This document shows positions 1 through 49,110 of a stretch of 64,000 nt of DNA, one piece after another (position 1 is the first letter of the stretch; every line of letters starts with the position of its first letter). Made by a program: the position numbers and the translations under genes. Where the stretch lies: the NCBI GenBank assembly GCA_947179485.1, contig OX359245.1, positions 40,597,067-40,661,066 on the forward strand. The letters are read 5' to 3'. Origin of the DNA: Allacma fusca. Its lineage: Eukaryota > Arthropoda > Collembola > Symphypleona > Sminthuridae. Under the pieces are notes generated by a model. It saw only the letters and a program-made list of their open reading frames with translations, was not told where the DNA came from and made no database searches.

Positions 1-626
1 AGAAAGTAACCATCATATCTTGTTTAAATAATTACGTGTGATATAATGAAACATCTATTTTGTACATAGTTTATGTTAACTGTAAGCCGACACTTGACAT
101 CCCAGAGAATGATATCATTGCATTACATTTGAGAATAAGGTTAATTGCATTGAGTGCAAAAAAGCGATTTATGGGGTGTGTGTTAGTTTTGAACAAGTAT
201 TGTTATTTATTGGTCCAATAATTATTTGACAGCTTTAGTAATTTTTGTATAAACACAGTCCGACGTCATTCACCCTACAATTATAGGGCTTACAAGCTTA
301 CATGATTGCAGATGCATGTATTGGCATATTCGGAAATTGCAAATAGTGTGAATTACCAGAAGAATTAGTACAACTAATTAAATTAGTATTGTCCTGCTAA
401 ATGTAAGCAATTCTCACGAATTATTTATTTGCTACCTATTTAATCCCATGGTTGTTTTACTTAATTTATTAAAATGTGAGTTTAATAGAAATTCCATCTG
501 CAGATGCTGCTTTGTTCAAAAACGCCCACCCACAAATGTGGTATAAATACACCTTGGATTCATTTAATTTTCATCCCATAATTCATTCTGAACTTATCCG
601 TCCTGAAACTCACGAAGGAAATCAAA
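1..626 (+). promoter_or_regulatory. Upstream region of class A gene 1 (half of a divergent intergenic region)
   Basis: Non-coding and AT-rich. It is identical to 4983-5608, which lies between a minus-strand class B gene and a plus-strand class A gene, so a class B partner is expected just left of the window. A TATA box (TATAAATA, 542-549) lies about 80 bp before the class A start codon. A 78-codon open frame beginning at 476 runs over the TATA box in another frame and is not a gene. Confidence 0.7.
542..549 (+). promoter_or_regulatory. TATA box of class A gene 1
   Basis: TATAAATA inside GTATAAATACACC, about 78 bp before the ATG. The same box precedes class A gene 2 (5524-5531) and gene 3 (10449-10456). 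A looser one (TATAAAAT, 27102-27109) precedes gene 4. Confidence 0.7.
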
Positions 627-1359
627 ATGGACGTCTCTTTTTTTATCTTGTTCGTGGCGGTAACTACAATCATTTCCGAGGCTACTTGCACAATTCCCAT
701 TCAACCCGGTGAAACTGACGGTGGGTAATTAAATTTAAAGGTACTTTTTGAGATTTTTGTTTTTAAGACAAAGTAATTAAATTAAGGTTGATTCTTTTCA
801 GTATTGGAAAGACTATCGTGTGCTCAAGTTCGATGTTCTGGGAGCCAAGTTTGCGAAATGGTGCCTGCGCCAAATGCTAGGTGCAATAAAACCTATCCTA
901 CTGTTTGCTACCCTAAGATACCAATCTGTAAGCCTCGTCCAGAAGGTATTTGTAAATGAATTCTAACGGAAATTTTTTACAAAGATTTAATAATATTTTA
1001 GACTTGTGTAACATATGAAACACTGTTTTCAGTGCTACCCATCTTCTGCGGATCAATTATTTGTCCACGGGGAACAGTTTGCAGAATGAGATCGTGTTTA
1101 AGCGTTAGATGCGTACCTCAGCCCATATGCGTTCGCAAGGGTCCACGTCCACGGGTAAGTTCCATTTGATTTGGTTTTATAATTTTGAGGACTTTTAAAC
1201 AAATATTTAGTAGATTAGATACATTCACTGGGTTTTATATGAAATATTTTCCTTCTGCAACAGCCGGTTCGGAAGGGTGGTATTTTGTCTACTACCAAGC
1301 CGACAGAAAGCGTAAAAACGATCCAGGCAACTACATCTGCGCCAATCGCCACAGCCTAA
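627..1359 (+). CDS. Secreted 12-cysteine two-domain peptide, class A gene 1
   Basis: Exons 627-720, 802-945, 1033-1154 and 1264-1359 give 151 residues with GT-AG introns in phases 1, 1 and 0. Exon 1 is a signal peptide (hydrophobic core FFILFVAVTTII, likely cleaved after SEATC or nearby). Exon 2 is a six-Cys domain, C-x4-C-x5-C-x9-C-x7-C-x6-C, starting SCAQVRC. Exon 3 is a second six-Cys domain, C-x4-C-x5-C-x4-C-x4-C-x5-C. Exon 4 is a Cys-free tail rich in Thr, Ala and Pro (TTKPTES, ATTSAPIATA) that could carry O-glycans. The spacing resembles small Cys-rich secreted proteins common in insects, but no named family can be assigned. The start codon is the first ATG after the TATA box that opens into a signal peptide. 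Function is unknown; a defence or extracellular role is only a guess. Confidence 0.85.
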
Positions 1360-2310
1360 TCAAGCGGATTATCGTGAAAGTATTTCTATAGAAAATGAAA
1401 TTAGCTTCTAATTACTTAAATGTGCTTGAAAATGATTAAAAAATTAGAATTACATGAAAAACACTGTATCTGGAATGAAACATCAAATTAAATACAATGA
1501 ATAAGATAGTAGTTGTACAAATTTCGATTGTTTTTTTATGTACAATCTCGATGCTTGAAAAGCAATCCATATTGCTTATTCAGTTTTCTAGAACACATTT
1601 AATTTTTTGGAACTATGGCAATATTCAACATAATTATTTCAACCTTTTCAAATTAATTGTTAACCCTACGTCTTTCGGATTATAAATAATTCCAGGGTTA
1701 AGATAAATATTTTACAATCTGAATGGGCTCACAACAGAGTTAATTACACTTCAGCTCAACGTTTAAACTTCAAACTTGGAGCATACGCATATAAAGTCCG
1801 TCATCATGAATATTGGATGCTAAATTGTACATGAAATTACTCAGTTAAAAAAAAAATTATTTGCTCTCAAAATCTGTTCAAACACTCTTTTGGAATTGAC
1901 ACTTGATAAAAGACATTAAATTGCAGCTTATCAGGAATCCGCTGGAAATTACCAATAAGCGGTTTCTATTATCTTGTTTGGGTAAAGTTGTGTACAATAA
2001 TGAATTTACATGTGTTTTGTCATTGGAAACCGTCCTTGTGGCTTACACATGCAAAGAATAATATCACTGTAATAATTCCGTGTAACTGATTGTATCGAGT
2101 AAATTATTTGAGGATCCATTCCCGCTTATTATTTGCTGTCAATATTAAATACAAATTAATTTAAGGCTACGGGTAATGGGCGAAGGCCGAAAAAACGTAC
2201 ATACATAAGTGCAAATATAAATTTTAATTAAAGCAGCTTCAAGAAATTCAACTTTAAATCAATCTATTCAGAACATGAAGGTACAGAATGATGCGAGTTT
2301 TTCACCAAAT
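1360..2310. other. Intergenic, no gene seen
   Basis: AT-rich sequence downstream of class A gene 1, repeated exactly at 6342-7292. A diverged version follows class A gene 3 (about 12,250-12,810). A 62-codon frame at 1497 is not kept in the diverged copy. Confidence 0.6.
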
Positions 2311-2319
2311 CCCACACAT

Positions 2320-3139
2320 TTGGGCTGCCCGCCCAAAATGCCCTTTAATTTTTAGCATTTTTATATGAGGGCAAGTGCAGCACAATTTAGCTTAATGGCA
2401 TAGGCATTTTTGACATTTTCATTCTACGACAATTGGGCATTTTGGGCAGAAGTGTGGAATAAAATAGCACAACTTGGCAGTCGACTTGAAAATGTCTTTG
2501 CAATTTCGAAAATGCCTTGCCTGGTATTTACATTGTTGTGGTTTTGGCTTATGTAACGACGCAAAATGAAATGCTAATAATTAAAATGATGATGGGCGAT
2601 CAGAGATATGTTTTCTGTTCACATTACAAACACATACAGTAATTTTTTGGCTACACAGGTGAACTAAAAAACATTACAGTATTTGAGTTAACTGCGTGAA
2701 GGTTGTTCATAGGTTTTTACTTAAGCCATTTATCCAGTAATTAGGGTCGATGATATTTTTATTCTGTATATCAATCACGCTATGATTGGAATTGATTTTC
2801 ATATGGGAGACCAATTATACCACCTCATGTCATTCAAATTAAATGGATTTGTCAATGTTTCTGCAATTAATATTAACTATTAAGCGAATAATCAGAAATT
2901 CACATATGTGACTTTACCTTCGCTGCGCTCCAGTACATTTGGAAATCATTTCTGAATCTAGAATACTGATCCGACTTCGGTGTCATAAAAGTGCCCAACT
3001 TGCCCTGAACAAAATTCCCAAAATCAGGGCAATTTCAAACGCTGCTCGCGTGTCCAAAATTCGGCACATGGGCAGGCATTTTGGGCATTTTCAGCTGGGT
3101 GGGCAAATACTGCAAGGCATTTTAAATCGGCATACCCTA
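2320..3139. mobile_element. Non-autonomous DNA transposon (820 bp)
   Basis: It is flanked by a direct repeat CCCACACAT (2311-2319 and 3140-3148). The diverged third copy of the host unit has CCCACACATATG near 12,813 with no such insertion, which supports a target-site duplication of 8 or 9 bp. The ends are imperfect inverted repeats around GGGC.TGCC.G and AAAATGCC. Internal GGGCATTTTGGGCA-like motifs recur near both ends. There is no transposase. The duplication length fits hAT (8 bp) or Mutator-like (9 bp) elements. Confidence 0.75.
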
Positions 3140-3148
3140 CCCACACAT

Positions 3149-3959
3149 GTGCTCACAAGCGGATAATTTTTATGATTGCACATATCTCTCTCAAAATAAT
3201 TATAATATTGTCATAATTAAGCCCTGAAGATGAACACTGTTTGAGTTCGAAAGCTTGGCAAATAAATTGATTCTAAGCAATATCCACGTATTCCAATTAT
3301 TTCAACATGGTTGATATTATATAATATTGTTGATTTTATGTGACTAATTGGTTATAAACAGGTAGGTGTCATCCAAGTAGCAAAGACCTTGTACAGATAA
3401 GTATGAGACAACCTTCAACATATTTTCGACGCACAATCCTTCCGGCCTTATGTAATTTAAGCTTTTTTGTTGAACAAAATCTAAGCTCTACGATTCATCA
3501 AAAGATACAGAATCTGATTGATTTTCGTACATCATTGACAGATTCACTTTTGGGCGCTTCTGTCCTGGAATACACAGGTAGTTCTGAAATCAGTCTGGTC
3601 ATTTCGTACGGGGTTACAGTAAAAATGTGATAAAAATATTACGGTAATTTTTTCCAGCAATTCAATTAATTCGAGAGAAATTTTATTTATTATTGTTATT
3701 ATTATTGATTATTGTTATTAGCAATTTGGAACAACAGTTAGATAAAATAACAAAAATGTGTACAAAAGATTTTTACAGTGCAATAAAAATATCCTAGTTC
3801 ATGTCTACATTATAGTAAATGATTGTTAATGGTGTAAATGGCATGTTAATATTCTATATTTTTAGGCTTCCGTTGGATGTGCAAAATGCTTTTTCAAAAA
3901 TGCCAAATCGTTATTTGGAGAGTGATCCAATGTAATATATGAAGGCAGAGTGGAGACAT
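3149..3959. other. Intergenic, conserved non-coding between unit copies
   Basis: Identical to 8131-8941. Parts (3150-3650) resemble 14,706-15,290 and the stretch before the class B 3' end resembles 17,324-17,580 in reverse. A 75-codon frame at 3403 is broken in the diverged copy, so it is not called a gene. Class B 3' UTR sequence probably occupies the last 250 bp. Confidence 0.55.
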
Positions 3960-4688
3960 CTAAACACGCCTGGTACCATTTACTGGCTGCAAAATGAACA
4001 TTCATTCATTTAACAGTAATTTAGAATACATGATAGAATATTTCTCAGTGAAATTGTTGTTGTATCTTACCTTTGTCAAAGCTGAAGCAAGTTTGCACGT
4101 GGAAGTTCGCACGACGAAGTGATGTTTCCTGATAATTCTTCGTCGAGGCAAAATGCAGGTGTACCCATCCAAACACAAAACTCTGGAACAAGGACCTGTG
4201 ACATTCTGTGGCAATCCTACGGAACAAAATACGGGTAACAATTATCACAAATGTCGACGCATTCACTATATAATAGTACAATCAACACCAGGGAACGGTA
4301 CTAAACGTTCTTTTTAACACATCCCAATGTCGCGAAATTAATTACCTGAGGACTTGATGCAAGTTGGTCGAAACTGGATTCGTGATGTGGAATTAGTACC
4401 TATTTGTTGTCGTACACATACCTCATCGCTGGAGTTACAACGTTTCCCGCCACACAAACGGGGACCGATCCATGGCCCTTAAAATTTAATGGTAAAATTA
4501 AAATTAGCTGAAATCTAACCGGAAGGTGAAGATCATTTTAAGATAATCTTTAAACTTTCTAAAGAATATACATGAAAATTGAAAATCACAATTGAAAACT
4601 TACTTTTTGCGAGTGTATCAGATGGGGTGATCGCAATCACAAAAATTGCTACAAAGATGGCGCAAACAATAAAATTGGAAAATTGCAT
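3960..4688 (-). CDS. Secreted 8-cysteine two-domain peptide, class B gene 1
   Basis: Minus-strand exons 4604-4688, 4346-4477, 4071-4216 and 3960-3986 give 129 residues, intron phases 1, 1, 0. Exon 1 is a signal peptide (MQFSNFIVCAIFVAIF..., ending TLAK). Exon 2 is a four-Cys domain, C-x4-C-x6-C-x18-C (LCGGKRC...EVCVRQQ). Exon 3 is a second four-Cys domain, C-x4-C-x5-C-x19-C (PCSRVLC, YTCILPRRR). The tail is PVNGTRRV. N-glycosylation sequons are NST in domain 1, NVT in domain 2 and NGT in the tail. Domain 2 has a very basic stretch (PRRR). The exon layout matches class A, so the classes are paralogous. Function is unknown. Confidence 0.87.
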
Positions 4689-5608
4689 TTTAGCTCAAAT
4701 CACAAAACTTTGACAAAGTTAAATCTTTTTATGTCCAAATTGATTTGTTGTGAATCCTTTTTTGACTCCAATGACCAAAAAAATGAGTTGAGCCCCTTTT
4801 ATACTCATTTTCGCTTATGATACAATTAAATCATTTTACTTATCTGTGTGCTATTTGTTGATGATTTATTACAGTATTTCGCATTTAGAACGTTTCCGCA
4901 TGTATGCATTAGCTTGTTGTCTGATCTTAAATTAAATGCTCAATTTGAAGAATTGAGAAATGCCTTATCAGCAATAGATTCCAGAAAGTAACCATCATAT
5001 CTTGTTTAAATAATTACGTGTGATATAATGAAACATCTATTTTGTACATAGTTTATGTTAACTGTAAGCCGACACTTGACATCCCAGAGAATGATATCAT
5101 TGCATTACATTTGAGAATAAGGTTAATTGCATTGAGTGCAAAAAAGCGATTTATGGGGTGTGTGTTAGTTTTGAACAAGTATTGTTATTTATTGGTCCAA
5201 TAATTATTTGACAGCTTTAGTAATTTTTGTATAAACACAGTCCGACGTCATTCACCCTACAATTATAGGGCTTACAAGCTTACATGATTGCAGATGCATG
5301 TATTGGCATATTCGGAAATTGCAAATAGTGTGAATTACCAGAAGAATTAGTACAACTAATTAAATTAGTATTGTCCTGCTAAATGTAAGCAATTCTCACG
5401 AATTATTTATTTGCTACCTATTTAATCCCATGGTTGTTTTACTTAATTTATTAAAATGTGAGTTTAATAGAAATTCCATCTGCAGATGCTGCTTTGTTCA
5501 AAAACGCCCACCCACAAATGTGGTATAAATACACCTTGGATTCATTTAATTTTCATCCCATAATTCATTCTGAACTTATCCGTCCTGAAACTCACGAAGG
5601 AAATCAAA
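4689..5608. promoter_or_regulatory. Divergent promoter region between class B gene 1 and class A gene 2
   Basis: About 0.92 kb between two start codons facing away from each other. A TATA box for class B (GTATAAAAG on the minus strand, 4796-4804) and one for class A (5524-5531) lie near the two ends. A related region of 0.87 kb separates class B gene 2 and class A gene 3, which suggests the pair is kept as a unit and perhaps co-regulated. Confidence 0.65.
4796..4804 (-). promoter_or_regulatory. TATA box of class B gene 1
   Basis: GTATAAAAG on the minus strand, followed by GGGCTCAACTC, about 108 bp before the ATG. The same arrangement precedes class B gene 2 (9774-9782), gene 3 (16469-16477) and gene 4 (20958-20966). 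Confidence 0.7.
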
Positions 5609-6341
5609 ATGGACGTCTCTTTTTTTATCTTGTTCGTGGCGGTAACTACAATCATTTCCGAGGCTACTTGCACAATTCCCATTCAACCCGGTGAAACTGA
5701 CGGTGGGTAATTAAATTTAAAGGTACTTTTTGAGATTTTTGTTTTTAAGACAAAGTAATTAAATTAAGGTTGATTCTTTTCAGTATTGGAAAGACTATCG
5801 TGTGCTCAAGTTCGATGTTCTGGGAGCCAAGTTTGCGAAATGGTGCCTGCGCCAAATGCTAGGTGCAATAAAACCTATCCTACTGTTTGCTACCCTAAGA
5901 TACCAATCTGTAAGCCTCGTCCAGAAGGTATTTGTAAATGAATTCTAACGGAAATTTTTTACAAAGATTTAATAATATTTTAGACTTGTGTAACATATGA
6001 AACACTGTTTTCAGTGCTACCCATCTTCTGCGGATCAATTATTTGTCCACGGGGAACAGTTTGCAGAATGAGATCGTGTTTAAGCGTTAGATGCGTACCT
6101 CAGCCCATATGCGTTCGCAAGGGTCCACGTCCACGGGTAAGTTCCATTTGATTTGGTTTTATAATTTTGAGGACTTTTAAACAAATATTTAGTAGATTAG
6201 ATACATTCACTGGGTTTTATATGAAATATTTTCCTTCTGCAACAGCCGGTTCGGAAGGGTGGTATTTTGTCTACTACCAAGCCGACAGAAAGCGTAAAAA
6301 CGATCCAGGCAACTACATCTGCGCCAATCGCCACAGCCTAA
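5609..6341 (+). CDS. Secreted 12-cysteine peptide, class A gene 2
   Basis: Identical to class A gene 1 in exons and introns. Exons are 5609-5702, 5784-5927, 6015-6136 and 6246-6341, encoding 151 residues: signal peptide, two six-Cys domains, Thr-rich tail. It is divergently paired with class B gene 1. Confidence 0.85.
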
Positions 6342-7301
6342 TCAAGCGGATTATCGTGAAAGTATTTCTATAGAAAATGAAATTAGCTTCTAATTACTTA
6401 AATGTGCTTGAAAATGATTAAAAAATTAGAATTACATGAAAAACACTGTATCTGGAATGAAACATCAAATTAAATACAATGAATAAGATAGTAGTTGTAC
6501 AAATTTCGATTGTTTTTTTATGTACAATCTCGATGCTTGAAAAGCAATCCATATTGCTTATTCAGTTTTCTAGAACACATTTAATTTTTTGGAACTATGG
6601 CAATATTCAACATAATTATTTCAACCTTTTCAAATTAATTGTTAACCCTACGTCTTTCGGATTATAAATAATTCCAGGGTTAAGATAAATATTTTACAAT
6701 CTGAATGGGCTCACAACAGAGTTAATTACACTTCAGCTCAACGTTTAAACTTCAAACTTGGAGCATACGCATATAAAGTCCGTCATCATGAATATTGGAT
6801 GCTAAATTGTACATGAAATTACTCAGTTAAAAAAAAAATTATTTGCTCTCAAAATCTGTTCAAACACTCTTTTGGAATTGACACTTGATAAAAGACATTA
6901 AATTGCAGCTTATCAGGAATCCGCTGGAAATTACCAATAAGCGGTTTCTATTATCTTGTTTGGGTAAAGTTGTGTACAATAATGAATTTACATGTGTTTT
7001 GTCATTGGAAACCGTCCTTGTGGCTTACACATGCAAAGAATAATATCACTGTAATAATTCCGTGTAACTGATTGTATCGAGTAAATTATTTGAGGATCCA
7101 TTCCCGCTTATTATTTGCTGTCAATATTAAATACAAATTAATTTAAGGCTACGGGTAATGGGCGAAGGCCGAAAAAACGTACATACATAAGTGCAAATAT
7201 AAATTTTAATTAAAGCAGCTTCAAGAAATTCAACTTTAAATCAATCTATTCAGAACATGAAGGTACAGAATGATGCGAGTTTTTCACCAAATCCCACACA
7301 T

Positions 7302-8121
7302 TTGGGCTGCCCGCCCAAAATGCCCTTTAATTTTTAGCATTTTTATATGAGGGCAAGTGCAGCACAATTTAGCTTAATGGCATAGGCATTTTTGACATTT
7401 TCATTCTACGACAATTGGGCATTTTGGGCAGAAGTGTGGAATAAAATAGCACAACTTGGCAGTCGACTTGAAAATGTCTTTGCAATTTCGAAAATGCCTT
7501 GCCTGGTATTTACATTGTTGTGGTTTTGGCTTATGTAACGACGCAAAATGAAATGCTAATAATTAAAATGATGATGGGCGATCAGAGATATGTTTTCTGT
7601 TCACATTACAAACACATACAGTAATTTTTTGGCTACACAGGTGAACTAAAAAACATTACAGTATTTGAGTTAACTGCGTGAAGGTTGTTCATAGGTTTTT
7701 ACTTAAGCCATTTATCCAGTAATTAGGGTCGATGATATTTTTATTCTGTATATCAATCACGCTATGATTGGAATTGATTTTCATATGGGAGACCAATTAT
7801 ACCACCTCATGTCATTCAAATTAAATGGATTTGTCAATGTTTCTGCAATTAATATTAACTATTAAGCGAATAATCAGAAATTCACATATGTGACTTTACC
7901 TTCGCTGCGCTCCAGTACATTTGGAAATCATTTCTGAATCTAGAATACTGATCCGACTTCGGTGTCATAAAAGTGCCCAACTTGCCCTGAACAAAATTCC
8001 CAAAATCAGGGCAATTTCAAACGCTGCTCGCGTGTCCAAAATTCGGCACATGGGCAGGCATTTTGGGCATTTTCAGCTGGGTGGGCAAATACTGCAAGGC
8101 ATTTTAAATCGGCATACCCTA
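7302..8121. mobile_element. Second copy of the 820-bp DNA transposon
   Basis: Exact duplicate of 2320-3139, with flanking CCCACACAT at 7293-7301 and 8122-8130. It was duplicated with the host unit rather than inserted independently. Confidence 0.75.
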
Positions 8122-8941
8122 CCCACACATGTGCTCACAAGCGGATAATTTTTATGATTGCACATATCTCTCTCAAAATAATTATAATATTGTCATAATT
8201 AAGCCCTGAAGATGAACACTGTTTGAGTTCGAAAGCTTGGCAAATAAATTGATTCTAAGCAATATCCACGTATTCCAATTATTTCAACATGGTTGATATT
8301 ATATAATATTGTTGATTTTATGTGACTAATTGGTTATAAACAGGTAGGTGTCATCCAAGTAGCAAAGACCTTGTACAGATAAGTATGAGACAACCTTCAA
8401 CATATTTTCGACGCACAATCCTTCCGGCCTTATGTAATTTAAGCTTTTTTGTTGAACAAAATCTAAGCTCTACGATTCATCAAAAGATACAGAATCTGAT
8501 TGATTTTCGTACATCATTGACAGATTCACTTTTGGGCGCTTCTGTCCTGGAATACACAGGTAGTTCTGAAATCAGTCTGGTCATTTCGTACGGGGTTACA
8601 GTAAAAATGTGATAAAAATATTACGGTAATTTTTTCCAGCAATTCAATTAATTCGAGAGAAATTTTATTTATTATTGTTATTATTATTGATTATTGTTAT
8701 TAGCAATTTGGAACAACAGTTAGATAAAATAACAAAAATGTGTACAAAAGATTTTTACAGTGCAATAAAAATATCCTAGTTCATGTCTACATTATAGTAA
8801 ATGATTGTTAATGGTGTAAATGGCATGTTAATATTCTATATTTTTAGGCTTCCGTTGGATGTGCAAAATGCTTTTTCAAAAATGCCAAATCGTTATTTGG
8901 AGAGTGATCCAATGTAATATATGAAGGCAGAGTGGAGACAT

Positions 8942-9668
8942 CTAAACACGCCTGGTACCATTTACTGGCTGCAAAATGAACATTCATTCATTTAACAGTA
9001 ATTTAGAATACATGATAGAATATTTGTGAGTGGAATTGTTGTTGTATCTGACCTTTGTCAAAGCTGAAGCAAGTTTGCACGTGGCGAAGCGACGAATCCT
9101 GAAAAATCTTCGTCGAGGCAAAATGCAGGTGTGTCCATCCAAACACAAAACTCTGGAACAAGGACCCGTTACATTCTGTGGCAATCCTAAGGAACAACAT
9201 AAGAGTAACAAGTAACAATGATCACAAATGTCGACGCATTCACTATATAATAATACAATCAACACCAGGGAACGGTACTAAACGTTGCATTTTAACACAT
9301 CCCAATGTTGCGAAATTAATTACCTGAGGACTTGATGCAAGTTGGTCGAAACTGGATTCGTGATGTGGAATTAGTACCTATTTGTTGTCGTACACATACC
9401 TCATCGCTGGAGTTACAACGTTTCCCGCCACACAAACGGGGACCGATCCATGGCCCTTAAAATTTAATGGTAAAATTAAAATTAGCTGAAATTTAACCGG
9501 AAGGTGAAGATAATTTGAAGATAATCTTTAAGCTTCCTAAAGAATATACATAGAAATTACAAACAAGAGACTAGAAAACTTACTTTTTGCGAGTGTATCA
9601 GATGGGGTGATCGCAATCACAAAAATTGCTACAAAGATGGCGCAAACAATAAAATTGGAAAATTGCAT
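8942..9668 (-). CDS. Secreted 8-cysteine peptide, class B gene 2
   Basis: Minus-strand exons 9584-9668, 9324-9455, 9053-9186 and 8942-8968. Exon 4 and part of intron 3 are identical to gene 1, whereas exon 3 is 12 nt shorter and differs in sequence (RRRFFRIRRFATC), so the second domain reads C-x4-C-x5-C-x15-C. Signal peptide and domain 1 are essentially those of gene 1. The length is 125 residues. The donor of intron 3 is GTCAGA. The switch from identical to diverged sequence inside this gene marks a crossover or conversion edge. Confidence 0.85.
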
Positions 9669-10533
9669 TTTGACTCAAATCTCAAAGCTTTGGCAAAGTT
9701 AAATCTTTTTATGTCCAAATTGATTTGTTGTGAATACTTTTCTGACTCTGATGAAGGGATAGAGCTGAGCCACTTTTTATACCTATTTTTGGTTATGTCA
9801 CAATTAAACCATTTTGCTTCTGTGTGCGACTTTTTGTTGGTTTTTGATTTATCGTGTGTAATGTTTCCGCCTATTGTACGCATTAGCTTGTAATTTGATT
9901 TTGAGTTAAATGGTGAATTCGAAGAATTAAGAAATAACTTATCAGCAGCATATCTTGTTTAAATAATTACGTTTGATATAATGCTGTGTCTATTTACATA
10001 GTTCGTGTTAATTGTAAGCCGTCACTTAACGTTCATGGAATGATTGCGCTGCATTACAGTTCAGGATTAACTTGTATGTGTGTTGTTACAGATTTAATGG
10101 TCCATTGTTAATTTGTCCCAATAGCGTTATTTATTCGTCCAACAGCTTTTATAATATTTGTATAAACAATCCGACGTAATTTAGGCTACAATTACAGAGT
10201 TTCCGTTTACATGATTGTTGATGCATGTATTAGGGAATTCAATAAATTGTAAGCAGTGCTAATTCCCTAAATAATTAGTTGGACAAATTAAAGCAATGTC
10301 CTGCTAAATATTATTTCTCTCGAATCATTTAATTGCTACCTATTTAATCCCATGGTTATTCTGCGTAAAATACTGAAATTTATGCTTAATATGAATTCCA
10401 TGTACAGGTGTTGCATTGTTGAAAAACGCCCCCCCCCCACAACTGTGGTATAAATACACCCTGGATTCATTTAATTGCTATCGCATAATTCATTCTGAAC
10501 TTATCCGTCCTGAAACTCACGAAGGAAATCAAA
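9669..10533. promoter_or_regulatory. Divergent promoter region between class B gene 2 and class A gene 3
   Basis: Homologous to 4689-5608 but clearly diverged. TATA boxes lie at 9774-9782 (minus) and 10449-10456 (plus). A C-rich run occurs at about 10,428-10,439. Confidence 0.65.
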
Positions 10534-11307
10534 ATGCACGTCTCTTTTTTTATCTTGTTCGTGGCGGTAACTACAATCATTTCCGAGGCTACTTGCACAA
10601 TTTCCATTCAACCCGGTAAAGCTGACGGTGGGTAAAAATATAGATTTTCGATTGTATTGTCCATGAATTAAATTTAAATATATTTTTTGAGACTGCTGCT
10701 TTAAGATAATAATTAAATTACGGTTGATTCATTTTAGAATTGGGAAAACGAACATGTGCTCAAGTTCGATGTTCTGGGGGCCAAGTTTGCCGGATGGAGC
10801 CTGCGCCAAATGCTGTATGTACAGATTACAGTTCTTATAAAAATTTTTGCTACCCTCTGAGACCAGTTTGTAAGCCTCGTCGACAAGGTATTTGCAAATG
10901 AATTTTAACCGAAATGTTTTGCGGAGATTTAATAATATTTTAGACTTGAGCAACATATGTAATACTGATTTCAGTGCTGCGCATCTTATGCGGATCCGTT
11001 AGGTGTCCACAGGGGACAGTTTGCAGAATGAGATCGTGTTTAAGCGTCAGATGCGTACCTCAGCCCATATGCGTTCGCAAGGGTCCACGACCACGGGTAA
11101 GTTCCATTTGATTTAGTTTTAGAATTTTGAGGACTTTTAAGCAAATATTTAGTACATTAGATGCATTTACTGGGTTTTATATGAAATATTTTCCTTCTGC
11201 AACAGCCGGTTCGGAAGGGTGGTATTTTGTCTACTACCAAGCCGACAGAGAGCGTGAAAACGATCCAGGCAACTACATCTGCGCCAATCGCCACAGCCCC
11301 GGCCTAA
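10534..11307 (+). CDS. Secreted 12-cysteine peptide, class A gene 3
   Basis: Exons 10534-10627, 10738-10887, 10975-11096 and 11206-11307 give 155 residues, phases 1, 1, 0. The signal peptide differs from gene 1 by one residue near the start (MHVSFF). Domain 1 is more diverged and two residues longer (TCAQVRC...VCRMEPAPNAVC). Domain 2 is nearly identical, and the tail is two residues longer (IATAPA). Domain 2 and the tail are much better conserved than domain 1, which may reflect selection or partial conversion. Confidence 0.85.
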
Positions 11308-12834: not shown

Positions 12835-14696
12835 GGTATCCTAGCTAAACGCATAAAGAGCTAAACGTATAACAGCTAAACGCATAGAGTTATACGCATA
12901 AGCAGCTAAACGTATAAGGTATCTAAACGCATAATCATCTATACGTATAAGGTATCTAAACATATAATCGTCTAAACGTATAGGCTTTAAAAACGTATAA
13001 TCGGCCAAACGTATAAGGTATTTAAAAGCATTTACATGTACATTTAATACATGTCCTTGCAAGACCATCGTCGCTAAAGAGACCAAATTGTCTCATGCAT
13101 AATCATCCAACGTCTATATGTAATTTCAATACAAGGAAAATAGTCTACGTACAGGCAATGCGTACGTACAGGTAAAACCCACGCAAATAGTTTGAATCCC
13201 ACTGTTTGTCAGGAGCCATTGATGACCCCGTAAAAATCAGTATTTACGCCAGTTACTGATATTTGCCTGACTATATTTCCGGGAGTGGCTTATAATATAT
13301 TTGATATTCTTGGACCGATTTTGTCAAGTTTTTCCAAAATTTACGTCATTAAACTGCGTCAACGTTTGGGTAATTTGAGCCACAAAAAGGGTACACGTAT
13401 GGATTGTTCCAGAGGTGGATTAATAAAATAATTTTTACCCTGGCCCTAACCCCCAAAATGGATTTGTGGGTGTGAAGCAGGATAATAAATAAATAAGATC
13501 ATCATTATTAACTTAATTCTTGTATCTTACAATCAAAATAGGTGTTTTGCAGAGCTTTACATTTGCAAAAGCAGGTGTCAAAAGCGTGTTGCAAAGGGAA
13601 TTCTAAATTATATTTGTTACTATCCTAAAACTGTTTGAAAAAATTAATTTTGGCGCTTGGTTCTAGAAAATTTCAATGACAGTTTGCACATATATTAGAC
13701 AATCCCTGTAATAGTTGTAATAGTATTGTATTTTGAGACGCCAGCAAAAATATGAAACAAAAAAGACAAAAAACTCTATCCGGAGCCAAATTAAAAGAAA
13801 TGCGGTAAGGGAAAAAGTTTGTCCAAAATTTAGGTTGTAGGATCTGAAATGTTTGACAACTTGATAAACTATTTGAATTGCCGGCATTTTCGGAAAATCT
13901 GGAAATTTTTTATTATTCAACCAGTATTTTTTCCATTATTTAGAATTTTAGCCAATATGTGCTAAAACATGTTCTTTCCATAATTATTTATCAAATTACT
14001 AGTACACTGAATGTAAAAAAATTATTGCAAATGGTGAGTTCGAGAATTAATAAAATTGTCGACATTGAGTCCATGAAGACGTGTATGCTCAACACGTGGT
14101 ACTCTTCTGGACTTAAATGCATACGAAATACATAATGGACTGGACTGAGATTTTTGCTAGGACTGAGACTGATAGGGACTAACGCATGGACACTACACGA
14201 TTGAGTGGACTGACAGAATGTTAGAATGCTACCTACTTGGGACTATTAGAGTTAGAGGACTTTCCTGTACACATTGCCTGTACTTAGACTATTATTATAA
14301 AATATTGGTATATATTCCTTTTATTTAAATTACATGCAGACGTGGGTTTAATATACAATCGACAATTTGATCCCTTTAACGACGATGCTGCTGCAAGGGA
14401 ATGTGTATAACGCTAAATATTGTTTTGATCCCTGAATTAAAATACTAGCCTTATTCAAACGAATGTCAATATACACATTATTATACATTTTGCTACCTTA
14501 TGCGTTTAGATACCCTATACGTATAGGTGATTATGCGTTTAGATACCCTATACGTTTAGACGATTATGCGTTTAGATACCTTATACGTATAGATGATTAT
14601 ACGTTTAGATACCTTATACGTTTAGCTGATTATGCGTATTGAGCTTATACGTTTAGCGGTTATACGTTTAGCTTTTATGCGTTTAGAGGTGTAACC
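12835..14696. mobile_element. Mutator-like non-autonomous transposon with mirrored motif arrays (1862 bp)
   Basis: It has a 9-bp direct repeat, AATAAACAT, at 12826-12834 and 14697-14705. The termini are inverted repeats of roughly 190-200 bp made of many copies of TAAACGTATAA or TAAACGCATAA joined by GGTATC or TCATC spacers, in opposite orientation at the two ends. Both ends begin GGT. The interior (13,040-14,480) has no convincing transposase; an 85-codon minus-strand frame at 13,663 is unrecognised. Long terminal inverted repeats with a 9-bp target duplication are typical of the Mutator superfamily, so that is the preferred class. The element lies close to the site where the 820-bp transposon sits in the sister units. 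Confidence 0.8.
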
Positions 14697-16587: not shown

Positions 16588-17323
16588 ATGCAATTTTCCA
16601 ATTTTATTGTTTGTGCCATCTTTGTAGCAATTTTTGTGATTGCGATCACCCCATCTGATACACTCGCAAAAAGTAAGTTTTCAATTGTGATTTTCAATTT
16701 TCATGTATATTCTTTAGAAAGTTTAAAGATTATCTTAAAATGATCTTCACCTTCCGGTTAAATTTCAGCTAATTTTAATTTTACCATTAAATTTTAAGGG
16801 CCATGGATCCGTCCCCGTTCGTGTGGCGGGAAACGTTGTAGCTCCAGCGATGAGGTATGTGTACGACAACAAATAGGTACTAATTCCACATCACGAATCC
16901 AGTTTCGACCAACTTGCATCAAGTCCTCAGGTAATTAATTTCGCGACATTGGGATGTGTTAAAAAAGAACGTTTAGTACCGTTCCCTGGTGTTGATTGTA
17001 CTATTATATAGTGAATGCGTAGACATTTGTGATCATTGTTACCCGTATTTTGTTCCGTAGGATTGCCACAGAATGTCACAGGTCCTTGTTCCAGAGTTTT
17101 GTGTTTGGATGGTTACACCTGCATTTTGCCTCGACGAAGAATTATCAGAAAACATCACTTCGTCGTGCGAACTTCCACGTGCAAACTTGCTTCAGCTTTG
17201 ACAAAGGTAAGATACATTAACAAATTCACTGATTGTGAGATATATTCTATCATGTATTCTAAATTACTGTTAAAAAAATGAATTTTCATTTTGCAGCCAG
17301 TAAATGGTACCAGGCGTGTTTAG
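16588..17323 (+). CDS. Secreted 8-cysteine peptide, class B gene 3
   Basis: Exons 16588-16672, 16799-16930, 17061-17206 and 17297-17323 encode 129 residues, phases 1, 1, 0. It is the only class B gene on the plus strand. Signal peptide, two four-Cys domains (SCGGKRC...; PCSRVLC...) and the tail PVNGTRRV are all intact, and the protein is nearly identical to class B gene 1. A polyadenylation signal AATAAA lies at about 17,568-17,573. Its expected divergent class A partner is missing. Confidence 0.87.
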
Positions 17324-20149: not shown

Positions 20150-20853
20150 CTAGATACGCCTAGTTCCATTTACTGGCTACAAAATCAGAGTTCATTAATT
20201 AATTTGTCATTTAGAATCCATGACAGATTATTTCTCAATGAAATTGTTGTTATATTTTACCTTTCTCAAAACTGGAACAACTTTGCACATTGCGAAGCGA
20301 AGATTACTGTAAAATTTTCGCCGAGGTAAAATGCAGGTGAACCCATCCAAGCACAAAACTCTGGAACAAGGACCTGTGACATTCTGTGGCAAATCTATGG
20401 AGCAACAGAAGTGTGACAATTGTAAGTATGATCACTTTATAAGCCAAGAGCAGGGAACGGTACTAAACGCTCTATTTTAACACTCCCCAATGTCGCGAAA
20501 GTAATTACCTGAGGACTTGATGCAAGTTCGTCGAAACTGGATTCGTGATGTGGAATTAGTACCTATTTGTTGTCGTACACATACCTCATCGCTGGAGTTA
20601 CAGCGTTTCCCGCCACACAAACGGGGACGGATCCATGGCCCTTAAAATTTAATGGTAAAATTCAAATTAGCTGTAATTTGACCGGAAGATGAAGATCATT
20701 TTAAGATAATCTTTAAGCTTCCTAAAGAATATACATAGAAATTACAAACAAGAGACTAGAAAACTTACTTTTTGCGAGTGTATCAGATGGGGTGATCGCA
20801 ATCACAAAAATTGCTACAAAGATGGCACAAACAATAAAATTGGAAAATTGCAT
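20150..20853 (-). CDS. Secreted 8-cysteine peptide, class B gene 4
   Basis: Minus-strand exons 20769-20853, 20509-20640, 20261-20394 and 20150-20176 give 125 residues, phases 1, 1, 0. Signal peptide and domain 1 are close to the other members. Domain 2 is the short form (C-x15-C at its end) with a distinct sequence (RRKFYSNLRFAMC). The tail is PVNGTRRI. The TATA box is at 20958-20966. The divergent class A partner expected to the right is absent. Confidence 0.85.
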
Positions 20854-22209: not shown

Positions 22210-22740
22210 GAGTCAAATTGTAAAAAAGTGTAAAATGTAACTCAATTCTATACATTCATCGGAGTCATAAAAGATTTCACGACAAATCAATTTAGACATA
22301 AAACATAAAAATATTTAACTTCCCCAGAGTTTTGAGATTCGAGCCAAAATGTAATTTTGGTAAGTCATTCCAAGTATTGATTTTACACTTTAAAAAACGC
22401 ATTTGGTACACCCATCGGAAGCCGAAAAATTTAGTTTATTGACATGTCATTTACAAGATTAACAATTATTCACAATAATTTAGTTATGTACTAGAATATT
22501 TTTATTATATATCAAATTTCGTGTACACTGACGTGTCCCAAATTATTAATAAATCGTTAAAGGTTTTCGTTAGTTAAAATTGTCCGAGAAGTTATTTTAA
22601 TTTGCTATTTTCCGGCCTACCCTAACGATTTTAATCCCACTGGATTTTTAATGGAAATTGAATGTCTTTTGAAATACAGTAAAGCCAATTTTTAGTCACA
22701 CCGCAGAGGACAGCCAATAAACGTGAATAAATAAATTAAA
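22210..22740 (+). pseudogene. Class B remnant: leader and 3' flank only
   Basis: 22,230-22,350 matches the class B leader down to the start-codon region, and 22,390-22,740 matches the class B downstream flank (compare 17,380-17,720). The exons for the Cys domains are not present. It is a broken family member on the plus strand. Confidence 0.65.
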
Positions 22741-22744
22741 TCTG

Positions 22745-25165
22745 TTGTATACAATTTTTTATTCACTGGTATGGAATACATCTAGATATATGTATCTATG
22801 TTTGGTCTTGACGTCTCCATTCTGTCCTGTAGTGTAGTGGTTGTCCAAAATTGCAAAAAAAAATCAATACGGTATTTTTCAAAATTTCACAAAATTTATT
22901 CCAAAACATTTTCCTAAACCAATATTTATTCCCAATTGTTTTTTTCTCTGGAAATTATATTTGCTCCAACGTGTCTTATATGTTGCAGAAAAAGTTCTGA
23001 ATAACAAATTTCAAGACGTAACAAGGCTTTTGTGTAAATAATGATTATTAATGTCATAATTGCGTTCCTTTTTTATTGTATTGCTTTGCCCCATAAATAT
23101 TTGTGGCCCATCTCATTAAGTTTGTGGCACCTCGGAGGAGATTGCAGCAGGATTTCCTTTTTTTATTGATTCCAGATTATTTACAAAACATAAAAGTTAG
23201 TTTATATTCATGCAACGTGCATTTACAATAACTATGTAAAATTATTGCTTATAGTTATTGAGGTGATTGGCTTAAATAAATACTTCAGAGTTGGAGAGGA
23301 ACAGAGAGGAACAAAACAGAGAGGCATCAGTGCAGTTCCAATTCCTTGAATTGATGACAAAATTTGGGTCGGAATAGTTAAGCAGTGATTTACTTTGGAT
23401 TTGATAACACCACTTTTTAACTTAAGGCGTATCTAGTATTAAATTTGTCCGTAATTAATAATTTTGCTAAATAATTATGTATTATTCAGGGAATTTCCAA
23501 TATAGTGGTTCCCAAGGGATATCAAAATGCCTGTCAATAAATGGAGATACCACTATACTATAAAATGTATGTGTATGTCATGGGAAACTTCAACATGCCA
23601 ATATAAGCGATGCCGTCAAAAAGGAAACCCCTACTCAGAAAATTCACTGTACTAAAATTATGCATTATACACACATATACATATGTATGACTCTGTACTT
23701 GACATTATTGCTTACATACAATATCACTTACATATTTTTATGATATCAAAGACCTTGTACAGGATAATATAATGCTCCTATAGATTTTGTTTAACTGTCA
23801 TCTCGATTTAAAGATAAATTTCGTTCCTTCTCGATTTCCTCGTAGTTATGTTAGTTTTACTTCAATGTAATTATTTTAATTTTAGTTCCCTGTTTTTTTA
23901 GTTAACTACACGCACCTTCTTTCCTTTACAGGGTGTATCCCTACGTAATTTCAGATTAGATATTTACAGGTAGTGTTCAGGGGAAATTATTCCAGCAATT
24001 ATGTAGCAAATATTGTGAAAGTCGAGATGAGTTGAGGAGAGGGAATAAAATGGTGAGGTCCGGAGATGAGTAGGGGAGTAATGTAATTAGTAACTTTTAT
24101 TAAAATAAAGGTAGGGCGTAGTTAGGTATAAACACAAGTATAATTATTAGGTATAATCTCCAACAATAATAATTCGTAAGCAGTAAATATAAATAAGAGA
24201 TAATATTCTCAGGGTCGCGAAGAAAACCAAAGTATGGAAAATTATGGAAAACTGAAGAGGGATGAGACACAATGTCGCTGTCTTGGTCGGTGGAGAGTGT
24301 GATTCCAAATATTATAAATAATCTATAGTAAGATTTCATAGCATCTTAACCAACACATTAATGTAGCCAATAAAAATAGATATTTTACAATAGAAATAGT
24401 AGCATCGATAATAAGTACAGGAATAAATAACAAATAAGTACAATGAGTATTTCCATAGCGACCTAATTGTAAGTTTTCTGTATGCTTAAGCATGCAGAGC
24501 AAGGAAACTCTGGATGTCGGAAACTTACGTTAACCTTATTTCCTATATTTAACATTAGCAAGGATGTCTGTAAGTGAAGACGAGCCCCTCTGCTGCCTGC
24601 AGAAGCACGCTAACTTGCGCTAGCCTTACACGAGGTATGTACCTAGCGGAGCGCCATTTGTTTACATGGCGTTCCAAGCGTAGGTACATTGGCCGATAAG
24701 TTCCGTGCGTTGCGTGCATCCCCAGCCGATTTATAATATGTGATAATGTAAAATTTAAAAAAATGTAATTATGCTGATGAGTTAAAAATATGTTTCAAAA
24801 TATATGCACCGATGTAATACACTTTCAAAACATTTAGGCCATTTCAATTAAAATAAGAAATTCGGGAGTAATTTAGAATGATAAAAATCCTACATTGATT
24901 GCAATTATATTTCAATAATGTTTTTATTATGCGAAACGTTTTCTACGCTTTATCAATTTGTAGTAAGTATTATTTGGAGTAAAAAATGTAAGCTAAACTT
25001 TTAGAGACGGAAGGTAGAGTGTATGATTTTTTGTGGTAGTTCATAAAATTATTTAGAAAAAGTTATAATGTATCTACATATGTACATATATGATGATAGC
25101 AAACAATGTTGTTGGTTCCATTCGCCATGATTTGAAAGAATTTGTGTAGACAGATACAGAATTGT
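22745..25165. other. Intergenic, no gene seen
   Basis: 23,470-23,650 resembles 62,460-62,650. 23,880-23,980 and 24,900-25,110 resemble 48,020-48,080 and 48,420-48,600, part of a duplicated segment with class B gene 5. 24,630-24,690 has a small GC-rich hairpin. The 79-codon minus-strand frame at 24,100 is unrecognised. Confidence 0.5.
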
Positions 25166-25915
25166 CTAATTACGTCTGGTACCATTCTGTGACTGGAAAA
25201 TAATCAGTTGTTAGTACTTGCATTCAATGGTTTAATTTAAACAGTTATAGCAAATTTACTTTTCCCCGGACTGGAACAATTTTGCAAGTTGCTTGCATAA
25301 CGTGTCTGAAAAATCTTTGCCGGGGCAAAACACAGGTGTAGCCTTCCAAGCACAAAACATTTGCACAAAGGCCCGTAACGTTCCTTGACAACCCTATCAA
25401 ATTACTCACAGTTTAACATTGTTGAAAAATAAGTCGGGCATTTTTATTTAATAGCGAATCTTGGTTTGAATATACTGGACATCTTAATATTTAGAAAAAA
25501 CCTGTCGAATTGACACATGTTGATTCAAATCCAATAATTTGATATGTTGAATTTATCTTCACTTGCTGACGTACACACACCTCATGGCTGGCATTACAAC
25601 GTTTAAAACCACAATACCGAATATCTTTTCCTGTAAAAAAATCATTTCCGAGGGATAAATTTTAAAATTCTACAAATACCATAAGTTACAATTTTAAACA
25701 GTTAACTAAAGATCAAAAGACAATAAGATTATCAACTACCTTATCATGTTAGGTAAGTTAATTAAATTTAAATTTTTGAAAAGGCGACATACGACTATTT
25801 GTTATACGAACTGCATAAAAAAGAACTTACTTGATGCAACCGTGTCAGAAGGGATGATTGCAATTACAGAAATTGCAACAAAAATTGCGCAAACAATGAA
25901 GTTGGTAAAGTTCAT
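25166..25915 (-). CDS. Secreted 8-cysteine peptide, class B gene 5 (diverged)
   Basis: Minus-strand exons 25831-25915, 25502-25630, 25260-25393 and 25166-25192 give 124 residues, phases 1, 1, 0. This is the most diverged class B member, yet all eight Cys, the signal peptide (MNFTNFIVCAIFV...) and the tail form (SQNGTRRN) are kept. Domain 1 reads YCGFKRC...EVCVRQQ; domain 2 reads LCANVLC...YTCVLPRQR. It pairs divergently with class A gene 4. Retention of every Cys despite heavy sequence change argues for function. Confidence 0.85.
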
Positions 25916-27193: not shown

Positions 27194-27946
27194 ATGTGGG
27201 CATCAATTTTAGTTCTGATCGCAGCTCTAGCTACAATTTCGGAGGTGACTTGCGCCGTTCTCATTGGGCCAAACAAAAATTTAGGTAAAAGGAAAAACGG
27301 AATTTAACCATATTACATCGTAAATATGGAGAAATGTTGAATTTTGACTGGTTGATTTTAGTATTGCAAGATGCTAATTGTGATCAAGTAAGGTGCTTTA
27401 GCAGCAACTACGTTTGCCAAATGGAGCCCTCTCCAAACGCTGTCTGCACTTTGAGCTTCCCTCGTGTTTGTGAGCCCATGAGACCTGTCTGTAAACCTCG
27501 TCCTCAAGGTAATACTTGTAAATTATATTTTTTGTGAGTAAGGATTTGATTCAAAATTTAATTCTAATTTATTAATTTATATTATAATTATTTGTTTTAA
27601 ATGTTAATGCAAATTTCAGTACTACCTATCTACTGTGGGTCAATTTTGTGTCCAACTGGAACAATTTGCAGAAAGAGGACGTGTTCAACTGCTAAATGCA
27701 TTTCTCGGTTCACGTGTGTGCGGGATGGGGCTTGGGTTCGTTAAATTCGGTTTATTTGTTAATATTTTTCACTTTATGGTCTATATTAGTCTTCATCTTT
27801 TCGGAGAGATTTCATCCAAATTATATTTGTAGACTAATGGAAGCTGGAATTTTAAGGCACGAAAAGCAACACCAGTGACAACGATACAACCAACTACCTC
27901 TACTGAGAACGTCGTTTTGCATCAAATCCCCACCCCGGCCAAGTAA
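27194..27946 (+). CDS. Secreted 12-cysteine peptide, class A gene 4 (diverged)
   Basis: Exons 27194-27284, 27362-27508, 27620-27735 and 27833-27946 give 155 residues, phases 1, 1, 0. The signal peptide is MWASILVLIAALATIS. All twelve Cys are kept: domain 1 NCDQVRC...VCQMEPSPNAVC, domain 2 YCGSILC...ICRKRTC. The tail is Thr/Pro-rich (ATPVTTIQPTTST) but otherwise different. The third donor is GTTCGT, weaker than the GTAAGT of the other members. That exon boundary is inferred from phase and alignment. Confidence 0.8.
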
Positions 27947-33030: not shown

Positions 33031-33040
33031 ATTCTGCCTG

Positions 33041-48019: not shown

Positions 48020-48605
48020 CTACACACCTCCTATCGTTTGAACGTTGTATCCCTACGTAATTACGGATTAGCTATTTCGCAGCAGTGCAGAACATTACTA
48101 ACAAGGACATTACTAATTGAACTACTTGCCTCATAAGCATATCAGTTATGAAGTCCTCCTTACCGCACCGGTGTTTTCAGACTTGTATCGCCTTGTCATA
48201 ATTATCTTCTGTGCAGTGATATACATTCAACAATGCCAATATCAAACCAAACCATCACAGTTAAGAAAACCTTTTCTAATCTACATCTTATAAGTGTACG
48301 ATCTCGAGCTACAGAATAATAATAATAACATATATACATTCTCCAAAATCATAACTGTCCATGCCACTTAGAATGATCCCGCGAAAAGTCTACGTCGATT
48401 TCAATTATTTCAATAATGGTTTTATTTGACGACACGCTTTTTGATTTTGTTATTTAGGGATAAGTAGATATTATTTGGAGTAAAAATACGTGAGCTCAAA
48501 ATGTAGGGACGAAAGGTAGAGCAAGTGAATCTTCGTAGTAGTACATACAATTATTTAGAACAAGGTACAGGTCATCTACATATATGATGATAGCAAATAC
48601 AAATA
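48020..48605. repeat. Duplicated segment related to 23.9-25.1 kb
   Basis: 48,020-48,080 matches 23,890-23,970 and 48,420-48,600 matches 24,920-25,105, in the same order and strand. It leads into the class B remnant. Confidence 0.55.
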
Positions 48606-48609
48606 CCGG

Positions 48610-48900
48610 AGGTTACAATTTTAAATAATTAATTAAAATGTAAAGATAATACGATTGTTAACTACCTTATCATGTTAGGTACGCTAATTAAATTTTTTGA
48701 AAAGGTGACATACGACTATTTGTTATACGAACCGCACAAAACGTAACCTACTTGATGCAACTGTGTCAGAAGAAACGATTGCAATAATTACAGAAATTGC
48801 AACAAAAATTGTGCACAATAAAGGTGGTAAAGGTAATTTTGACGGAGGATCTCGAAATTTGATGAAATCTGATCAGTCAAAGTTGTATTCTAATTGATTC
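48610..48900 (-). pseudogene. Class B remnant related to gene 5
   Basis: Matches 25,670-25,990, that is the first intron, the signal-peptide exon and the leader of class B gene 5. The Cys-domain exons are absent. Broken. Confidence 0.65.
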
Positions 48901-48904
48901 TCTG

Positions 48905-49110
48905 TGTGAAATCCGTAGATGCACATTTTAATTTCGCTCACCCTCAACTCACGTTCATTGGCTAGGAACCACATCTCACGCGCAATCATGCCACCACACA
49001 ATTGTGTACACATTTTATAAACGCCTTCAAGCTCATGAGCGCACCAAGAAATAATTATGCGCCCATCCGCGAACGCATGAGGGCGCTTATTCAATCTACA
49101 CGTACATCGG
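48905..49110. mobile_element. Fragment of the GAGGGTGAG-type element
   Basis: Reverse-complement relative of 51,540-51,730. It shares TAGATGCACATTTTA, TTTCGCTCACCCTCA and the GAGCGCACCAA stretch with the right arm of 50492-51742. One terminus only. Confidence 0.6.

What the first reader, a model, noticed from the sequence alone, without database searches (positions are those of the whole stretch)
3960..6341. Divergent pairs of paralogous Cys-rich secreted peptides
Class B (-) and class A (+) genes sit head to head around a shared 0.87-1.28 kb region in three pairs (genes at 3960/5609, 8942/10534, 25166/27194). The two proteins are related but carry 8 versus 12 Cys. Such a conserved bidirectional pair suggests co-expressed, possibly interacting partners, a system I do not recognise.
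Basis: partly seen in the sequence, partly recalled or inferred. Interest (0 to 1): 0.8.

Follow-up and report, generated by a model that had tools for sequence, protein, structure and literature searches.

The report
Tandem cluster of paired Cys-rich peptides
An animal genome carries a cluster of small, probably secreted, cysteine-rich protein genes of two related kinds, often lying back to back; the arrangement looks like the result of repeated local duplication, inversion and copy-correction of one old pair rather than proof of a new partner system.

Summary
Three head-to-head B(-)/A(+) pairs lie at the stated places, with gaps of 920, 865 and 1278 bp; the mature parts carry 8 (B) and 12 (A) Cys. 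A and B look like paralogues: four exons, intron phases 1-1-0, one exon per Cys module, the same C-x4-C-x5/6-C core and similar predicted hairpins.

The window holds 4 intact A and 5 intact B models plus relics. Pairs 1 and 2 are copies of one 5-kb unit, of which 4043 bp repeat without mismatch. Intact B3 and B4 have no working A neighbour. The gap is less conserved between pairs 1 and 2 than sequence downstream of A, and pair 3's gap has no blastn match to pair 1's. Each gene has a TATA-like box of its own; within pairs, promoters share no more 7-mers than random windows do.

Most likely an ancient inverted duplication, kept in a tandem array by unequal exchange and gene conversion, encoding glandular or matrix proteins. 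Silkmoth chorion A/B pairs and Drosophila Sgs3/7/8 are the closest parallels. Function and co-expression are untested; no relative was found in the viral and prokaryote collections searched.

The parts
3960..4688 (-). B1, class B gene; exons 4688-4604, 4477-4346, 4216-4071, 3986-3960; 129 aa, 8 Cys in the mature part
   Evidence: (splice model)
5609..6341 (+). A2, class A gene; exons 5609-5702, 5784-5927, 6015-6136, 6246-6341; 151 aa, 12 Cys in the mature part, S/T-rich tail
4689..5608 (.). 920-bp gap of pair 1, with a TATA-like box about 110 bp from the B1 ATG and another about 85 bp from the A2 ATG
627..1359 (+). A1, class A gene identical to A2; any B partner would lie outside the window
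8942..9668 (-). B2, class B gene, 125 aa; its exon 4 and 3' flank are identical to those of B1
9669..10533 (.). 865-bp gap of pair 2
10534..11307 (+). A3, class A gene, 155 aa
14826..15220 (-). A4 relic facing B3: part of exon 1, intron 1, exon 2 (with in-frame stops) and the edge of exon 3 still align
16588..17323 (+). B3, intact class B gene in inverted orientation, 3 amino acids different from B1
20150..20853 (-). B4, intact class B gene; no A-like sequence found beside it
22256..22722 (+). relic of a B gene: promoter end next to 3' flank, coding part lost
25166..25915 (-). B5, most divergent class B gene, 124 aa
25916..27193 (.). 1278-bp gap of pair 3; 26456-26702 resembles sequence otherwise found downstream of A genes
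27194..27946 (+). A5, most divergent class A gene, 155 aa (exon 4 depends on a weak donor)
48368..48911 (-). B5-like relic: 48598-48911 matches the region around B5 exon 1 (25671-25987, 85%), 48368-48597 matches the B5 3' flank (24873-25103, 72%); what lies between them in B5 (exons 2-4) is missing
1..4043 (+). first copy of an exact tandem repeat (= 4983-9025, no mismatch), breakpoint in intron 3 of B1/B2

Best explanation
This is a local multigene array of two paralogous classes of small, probably secreted, disulfide-stabilised proteins. An ancestral gene (signal-peptide exon, then two exons each coding one hairpin module with a C-x4-C-x5/6-C...C core, then a short tail) was duplicated in inverted orientation. 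One class (A) has an extra Cys pair per module and an S/T/P-rich tail; the other (B) has four Cys per module and several N-glycosylation sequons. The pair was then multiplied by tandem and inverted duplication, with losses, unequal exchange and gene conversion over gene bodies. Each gene probably uses its own TATA promoter; head-to-head order is mainly inherited. Shown here: gene anatomy, relatedness of the classes, purifying selection between old copies, relics, conversion-like tracts. Inferred: secretion, disulfides, promoter use, and the direction of change (gain or loss of the Cys pair). Function is inferred as a co-secreted glandular or extracellular-matrix product (glue, eggshell, cuticle or similar) that folds and perhaps cross-links by disulfides.
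For: Identical four-exon plan with phases 1,1,0 in 9 of 9 models. An HMM of A modules ranks the 10 B modules 2-28 among 1504 other scored ORFs, and an HMM of B modules ranks the 8 A modules 1-92 of 1876; among ORFs with 3 or more Cys p = 5.6e-8 and 1.6e-6, optimistic because the modules are partly copies. Predicted two-strand hairpin for A2 module 1 (pLDDT 89.4) and B1 module 1 (76.5). Profile match of the modules to solved chicken CREMP, E 1.2e-6 (both classes) and 1.4e-7 (A only). Hydrophobic N-termini and basic mature parts. B1/B3 exons 1-3 with introns 1-2: 98.5% identical (609/618) against 83.2% in flanks (877/1054, gap columns left out), introns too (252/255; Fisher p 2e-27 and 1.5e-14), although B3 is inverted about 12 kb away (counts; scan). 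Exact 4043-bp repeat. Relics of A4 and of two B genes. Own TATA-like boxes, no excess of shared 7-mers within pairs, weakly conserved gaps. dN/dS 0.26-0.35 for A5 against A2/A3 and 0.27-0.30 for B5 against B1-B4, from the dN and dS. Parallels: chorion locus (PMC4639761, passages) and Sgs3/7/8 (PMC6352337 and PMC10835880, passages).
Against: No expression, proteomic or tissue data. The species is unknown and no relative was found, so a structural or glandular role rests on analogy. A-B similarity by sequence alone is marginal (hhalign P 0.006, probability 6%; hmmsearch E 0.006-1.9 in databases of 3 or 5 proteins). The B-only profile does not find CREMP, single CREMP modules score only E 0.85-7.8, and Foldseek finds no PDB match at E 0.001 or below for either model. 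A2 alone matches snake phospholipases A2 about as well as it matches CREMP (E 0.021 against 0.013). Synonymous sites between old copies are near saturation, and in A exon 4 beyond it. Head-to-head order has survived in the oldest pair, which a purely passive account does not explain.
Confidence: 0.5

Rival explanations
1. One reading: A and B are co-expressed partners driven by a shared bidirectional control region and act together, for example as a heterodimer or copolymer.
For: Head-to-head order kept in an old pair (synonymous divergence about 1 or more in both A and B) and in the young copies; both classes under purifying selection; silkmoth chorion A/B pairs do work this way (PMC4639761 passages); A5 shares 8 of the 40 7-mers common to B1-B4, against 3.8 on average for random windows (13% reach 8), and A2-B5 share 66 (2.4% of random windows reach that).
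Against: Own TATA-like box per gene, and no excess of shared 7-mers within the three pairs; gap 79% identical between pairs 1 and 2, below two stretches downstream of A; no blastn match between the gaps of pairs 1 and 3; intact B3 and B4 without an intact A neighbour; pairs 1 and 2 are not independent.
Confidence: 0.25
2. The proteins are venom, salivary or antimicrobial effectors of a fast-evolving secreted peptide family; the extra Cys pair changes target or stability.
For: Small, cationic (pI 9.2-11.4), Cys-rich, tandemly amplified, with variable module 1 in A (A2/A3 exon 2 dN 0.295, dS 0.213) and a variable loop in B module 2; weak matches of A2 to snake phospholipases A2 (best E 0.021), of B1 to the centipede toxin RhTx (E 0.52) and of 1 of 14 modules to Pfam Toxin_11 (E 0.3).
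Against: None of these matches reaches E 0.001 or a Pfam cut-off; the excess of nonsynonymous change in A2/A3 exon 2 rests on few sites and was not significance-tested; whole-protein dN is below dS for every pair compared; two-module proteins with sequons or an S/T-rich tail are unlike most small toxins (general knowledge).
Confidence: 0.2
3. Part of the pattern (the exact repeat, hence A1 = A2 and the shared 3' end of B1 and B2) is an assembly duplication, so that there are fewer genes than counted.
For: 4043 bp with zero mismatches; the window also holds a triple tandem of a LINE-containing 3965-bp unit at about 99.9%.
Against: The repeat breaks inside intron 3 of B1/B2, and the sequence beyond differs by several per cent with indels; B3, B4, B5 and A5 do not depend on it.
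Confidence: 0.2

Closest known systems
Silkmoth (Bombyx mori) chorion A/B gene pairs, especially the late high-cysteine HcA/HcB pairs
   Same: Two classes of secreted eggshell proteins in tight, divergently transcribed pairs, repeated in a cluster, with pseudogenes and gene conversion (PMC4639761, passages).
   Different: There the Hc gap is 330 nt and most pairs have a common promoter region (same passages); here the gaps are 865-1278 bp with separate TATA-like boxes. Chorion Gly-rich repeats (recalled) are not seen here, and two B genes stand alone. No chorion sequence was compared.
Drosophila salivary glue genes Sgs3/Sgs7/Sgs8
   Same: Small Cys-rich secreted paralogues in a tight cluster with a shared phase 1 first intron, and repeated duplication, loss, local inversion and gene conversion (PMC6352337 and PMC10835880, passages).
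   Different: In Sgs genes the intron interrupts the signal peptide; here it lies after codon 28-31. Here there are three introns and two Cys modules; Sgs3 has internal repeats. No Sgs sequence was compared.
[quoted passage not shown]
   Same: C-x4-C-x5-C core in the printed alignment; profile match E 1.2e-6 summed over four modules.
   Different: Single CREMP modules score only E 0.85-7.8 and the B-only profile does not match. Convergence on a short Cys spacing is possible.
FOLN (follistatin/osteonectin-like EGF) hairpin, Pfam PF09289
   Same: Similar Cys opening and hairpin (recalled).
   Different: 1 of 14 modules matches, at E 0.16; not significant.
Centipede toxin RhTx (PDB 2mva)
   Same: Same opening Cys spacing in the printed alignment; E 0.52 to B1 module 2.
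   Different: Not significant; a 27-residue single-module toxin with two disulfides (PMC4589873, passages).

Membership tests
Silkmoth-type chorion A/B pairs | Divergent pairs of two paralogous classes, repeated in a cluster | tested here: met
Silkmoth-type chorion A/B pairs | Short common promoter region between the two genes | tested here: not met
   Gaps 865-1278 bp, separate TATA-like boxes, no excess of shared 7-mers within pairs, weak conservation
Silkmoth-type chorion A/B pairs | Chorion sequence signature | tested here: inconclusive
   No Pfam family reached its cut-off for five proteins; no chorion sequence was compared directly
Silkmoth-type chorion A/B pairs | Expression in follicle cells | not testable with these tools
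   No RNA data
Sgs-like glue genes | Phase 1 intron interrupting the signal peptide (as described in PMC6352337) | tested here: inconclusive
   Intron 1 is phase 1 in 9 of 9 models but lies after codon 28-31, at or past the hydrophobic stretch; no signal-peptide predictor was run
Sgs-like glue genes | Clustered Cys-rich paralogues with duplication, inversion, loss and conversion | tested here: met
Sgs-like glue genes | Sequence homology to Sgs proteins; salivary expression | not tested
   No Sgs sequence was compared; no expression data
CREMP modules | C-x4-C-x5-C...C repeat recognisable by profile | tested here: inconclusive
   E 1.2e-6 for both classes and 1.4e-7 for A only, but no match for B only
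FOLN domain | Pfam PF09289 score above cut-off | tested here: not met
   best E 0.16, 1 of 14 modules
Bidirectional-promoter gene pair | Correlated expression of both genes | not testable with these tools
   No RNA data
Bidirectional-promoter gene pair | Conserved shared control region | tested here: not met

The most novel reading that the evidence does not exclude
A and B are the two obligate parts of one extracellular material or signal: class A brings six-Cys modules and an O-glycosylatable tail, class B brings four-Cys, N-glycosylated, cationic modules, and the two assemble at a set ratio, with solitary B3 and B4 tuning that ratio. Such a two-component disulfide system, in a family that no Pfam or NCBIfam model recognised here, would be a chorion-like design reached independently.
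Probability: 0.15. Interest if true: 0.6.

Novelty: new member of a known kind. Interest (0 to 1): 0.35.

Why it matters
It adds a compact example of a Cys-rich, probably secreted family growing by pair duplication, inversion and gene conversion, with one exon per Cys module and a clear difference of one Cys pair per module between paralogues. If the two classes do work together, it would be an independent counterpart of the silkmoth chorion pairs and a test bed for how paired genes stay paired.

Tried and rejected
A shared bidirectional promoter was looked for by gap alignment, TATA scan, shared 7-mers and sliding identity; not supported, with two weak exceptions told above. Known family membership was tried with Pfam, NCBIfam (one A and one B protein), PDB by sequence and profile and Foldseek. 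Only the CREMP profile match is below E 0.001. Weaker ones, all below Pfam cut-offs or above E 0.001: DUF5432 (B5, E 0.015), CC domain (B1, 0.099), TILa, RPAP2_Rtr1, Toxin_11, CBM_1, FOLN; snake phospholipases A2 (A2, best 0.021); hyaluronidases (0.097 and 1.0). Module alignments held 14 of the 18 modules, 6 of 8 A and 9 of 10 B; the rows left out are identical in protein to rows kept.

Relatives elsewhere were sought with one A and one B protein in viral contigs and with the A protein only in prokaryote genomes: none confirmed, as expected for animal genes; no eukaryote collection was available. The organism was not identified; PDB hits of the neighbouring farnesyl-diphosphate-synthase-like gene are not diagnostic. 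Rfam found nothing at its gathering scores. A first regular expression used the wrong spacing (C-x3-C) and missed the modules; the corrected one is. A first A5 model was out of frame and was corrected.

Literature: seven of ten searches used. Searches used generic terms; the 10, 8 and 8 rows listed (of 28, 129 and 37 papers) showed nothing on this family. No claim is made that it is unpublished. Of five papers I saw passages only; none was read whole.

Full report
What is there. The window looks eukaryotic: spliced genes, TATA-like promoters, a LINE and a copia-type gag; no whole genome is held for it. I rebuilt the genes with consensus splice sites. Class A: A1 627-1359, A2 5609-6341, A3 10534-11307, A5 27194-27946, all on +. 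Class B: B1 4688-3960 (-), B2 9668-8942 (-), B3 16588-17323 (+), B4 20853-20150 (-), B5 25915-25166 (-). All nine models have four exons and intron phases 1, 1, 0: a hydrophobic signal-like exon, one exon per Cys module, and a tail. Mature parts, with cleavage sites set by me, hold 12 Cys in 4 of 4 A and 8 Cys in 5 of 5 B. Gaps in the three reported pairs are 920, 865 and 1278 bp.

Are A and B related? By plain sequence the link is marginal (hhalign P 0.006 but probability 6%; hmmsearch E 0.006-1.9 between classes, in databases of three or five proteins). Other tests agree that they are. A profile of A modules ranks the B modules 2, 3, 4, 5, 7, 13, 17, 18, 22 and 28 among 1504 other scored ORFs of the window; the best of those others in the E-value list is the A4 relic. 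A profile of B modules ranks the A modules 1, 2, 4, 5, 6, 42, 49 and 92 of 1876. Among ORFs with at least 3 Cys the rank tests give p 5.6e-8 and 1.6e-6; the modules are partly copies of each other, so these p-values are optimistic. The exon plan and phases are the same. AlphaFold2 gives a short N-terminal segment and then one two-strand hairpin for both (A2 module 1, pLDDT 89.4, six rows; B1 module 1, 76.5, nine rows). The alignment of 14 modules shows four invariant Cys; class A has two more Cys in each module.

How the array arose. Bases 1-4043 and 4983-9025 are identical without a mismatch, and the repeat ends in intron 3 of B1/B2. So pairs 1 and 2 are copies of one 5-kb unit, and A1 equals A2. 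B3, inverted about 12 kb away, is 98.5% identical to B1 over exons 1-3 and introns 1-2 (609 of 618) but 83.2% in the flanks (877 of 1054, gap columns left out; Fisher p 2e-27; introns alone 252 of 255, p 1.5e-14, counts). A sliding scan shows the high-identity tract running from near the ATG to a few hundred bases past the stop. Selection on protein does not explain near-identical introns; gene conversion or a recent exchange does. A2 and A3 behave alike: exons 3-4 and intron 3 are 91-98% identical while exon 2 is 80.6%. Relics show losses: an A gene with in-frame stops facing B3 (15220-14826), a B promoter end next to a B 3' flank (22256-22722), and a B5-like relic lacking exons 2-4 (48368-48911).

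Is the pair itself functional? For: both members of the oldest pair are kept under constraint (A2-A5 dN 0.459, dS 1.305; B1-B5 dN 0.285, dS 0.977; synonymous sites near saturation, and beyond it in A exon 4). Against: B3 and B4 are intact without an intact A neighbour. Within the pair 1/pair 2 gap, identity is 79.0% (677 of 857), lower than downstream of A (251 of 287 and 441 of 536), and it is highest at the two promoter ends and in patches between, lowest (53%) in the middle. The pair 3 gap has no blastn match to the pair 1 gap. It contains 26456-26702, which matches sequence that otherwise lies 3' of A genes, so something has been lost or inserted there, or the stretch is a dispersed repeat. 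Each gene has its own TATA-like box. Of the 40 7-mers common to the B1-B4 promoters, A2 and A3 hold only the TATA box and its complement, fewer than random windows on average (mean 3.8); A5 holds 8 (13% of 2000 random windows hold as many). Within pairs the promoters share 46, 44 and 34 7-mers, no more than random windows; the cross-pair A2-B5 value of 66 is high (2.4%, five such comparisons, no correction). So the gaps look like two ordinary promoters back to back, not one control region. Distant enhancers acting on both remain possible.

What the proteins may do. All models begin with a hydrophobic stretch; mature parts are basic (pI 9.2-11.4). B has 3 to 5 N-glycosylation sequons beyond the first 27 residues, A at most one; A instead has an S/T/P-rich tail. 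Pfam and NCBIfam give nothing above cut-off. The only outside match below E 0.001 is to the solved four-module chicken eggshell-membrane protein CREMP (E 1.2e-6; 1.4e-7 with A modules only). B modules alone do not find it, single proteins do not either (A2, E 0.013, close to snake phospholipases A2 at 0.021), and Foldseek finds no convincing fold match. CREMP is described as a potential structural eggshell-membrane component (PMC4608100, passages). With a short Cys spacing, convergence cannot be excluded. I favour a structural or glandular product, on three grounds: the CREMP hint, glycosylation potential, and the close match in genomic behaviour to silkmoth chorion pairs and Drosophila Sgs genes. 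This step is inference. A venom, salivary or antimicrobial role is not excluded.

Verdict. The system works like known divergent Cys-rich arrays; it is not shown to be a member of any named family. Interest is moderate because the family is unnamed in the libraries searched and a two-component role is untested.

Noticed in passing
29885-31412 (-) and 53684-55212 (-): Two paralogous multi-exon farnesyl-diphosphate-synthase-like genes, 81.7% identical in DNA; the first matches Pfam PF00348 at E 9e-60, the second was not scanned. Duplicated copies are recruited as terpene synthases in some insects (recalled).
   Followed up: partly
31687-43593: Three tandem copies of a 3965-bp unit at about 99.9% identity, with a LINE-type reverse transcriptase (PF00078 in 43032-43742); either a tandem LINE array or an assembly duplication.
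   Followed up: partly
1-4043 and 4983-9025: Exact tandem repeat without any mismatch; real recent duplication or assembly duplication.
   Followed up: partly
26456-26702: Stretch about 71% identical to sequence 3' of A1 and A2, which recurs 3' of A3, but here lying between B5 and A5; hints at a lost A gene between them or at a dispersed repeat.
   Followed up: partly
12845-13031 and 14498-14686: Short tandem repeats in opposite orientation about 1.5 kb apart, near the A4 relic.
   Followed up: no
46701-47246 (+): copia-type gag fragment (PF14223, E 4.7e-12).
   Followed up: no
56218-57297 (+): 359-aa open frame without a Pfam match at E 0.01; looks like a retroelement remnant (impression only).
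   Followed up: no
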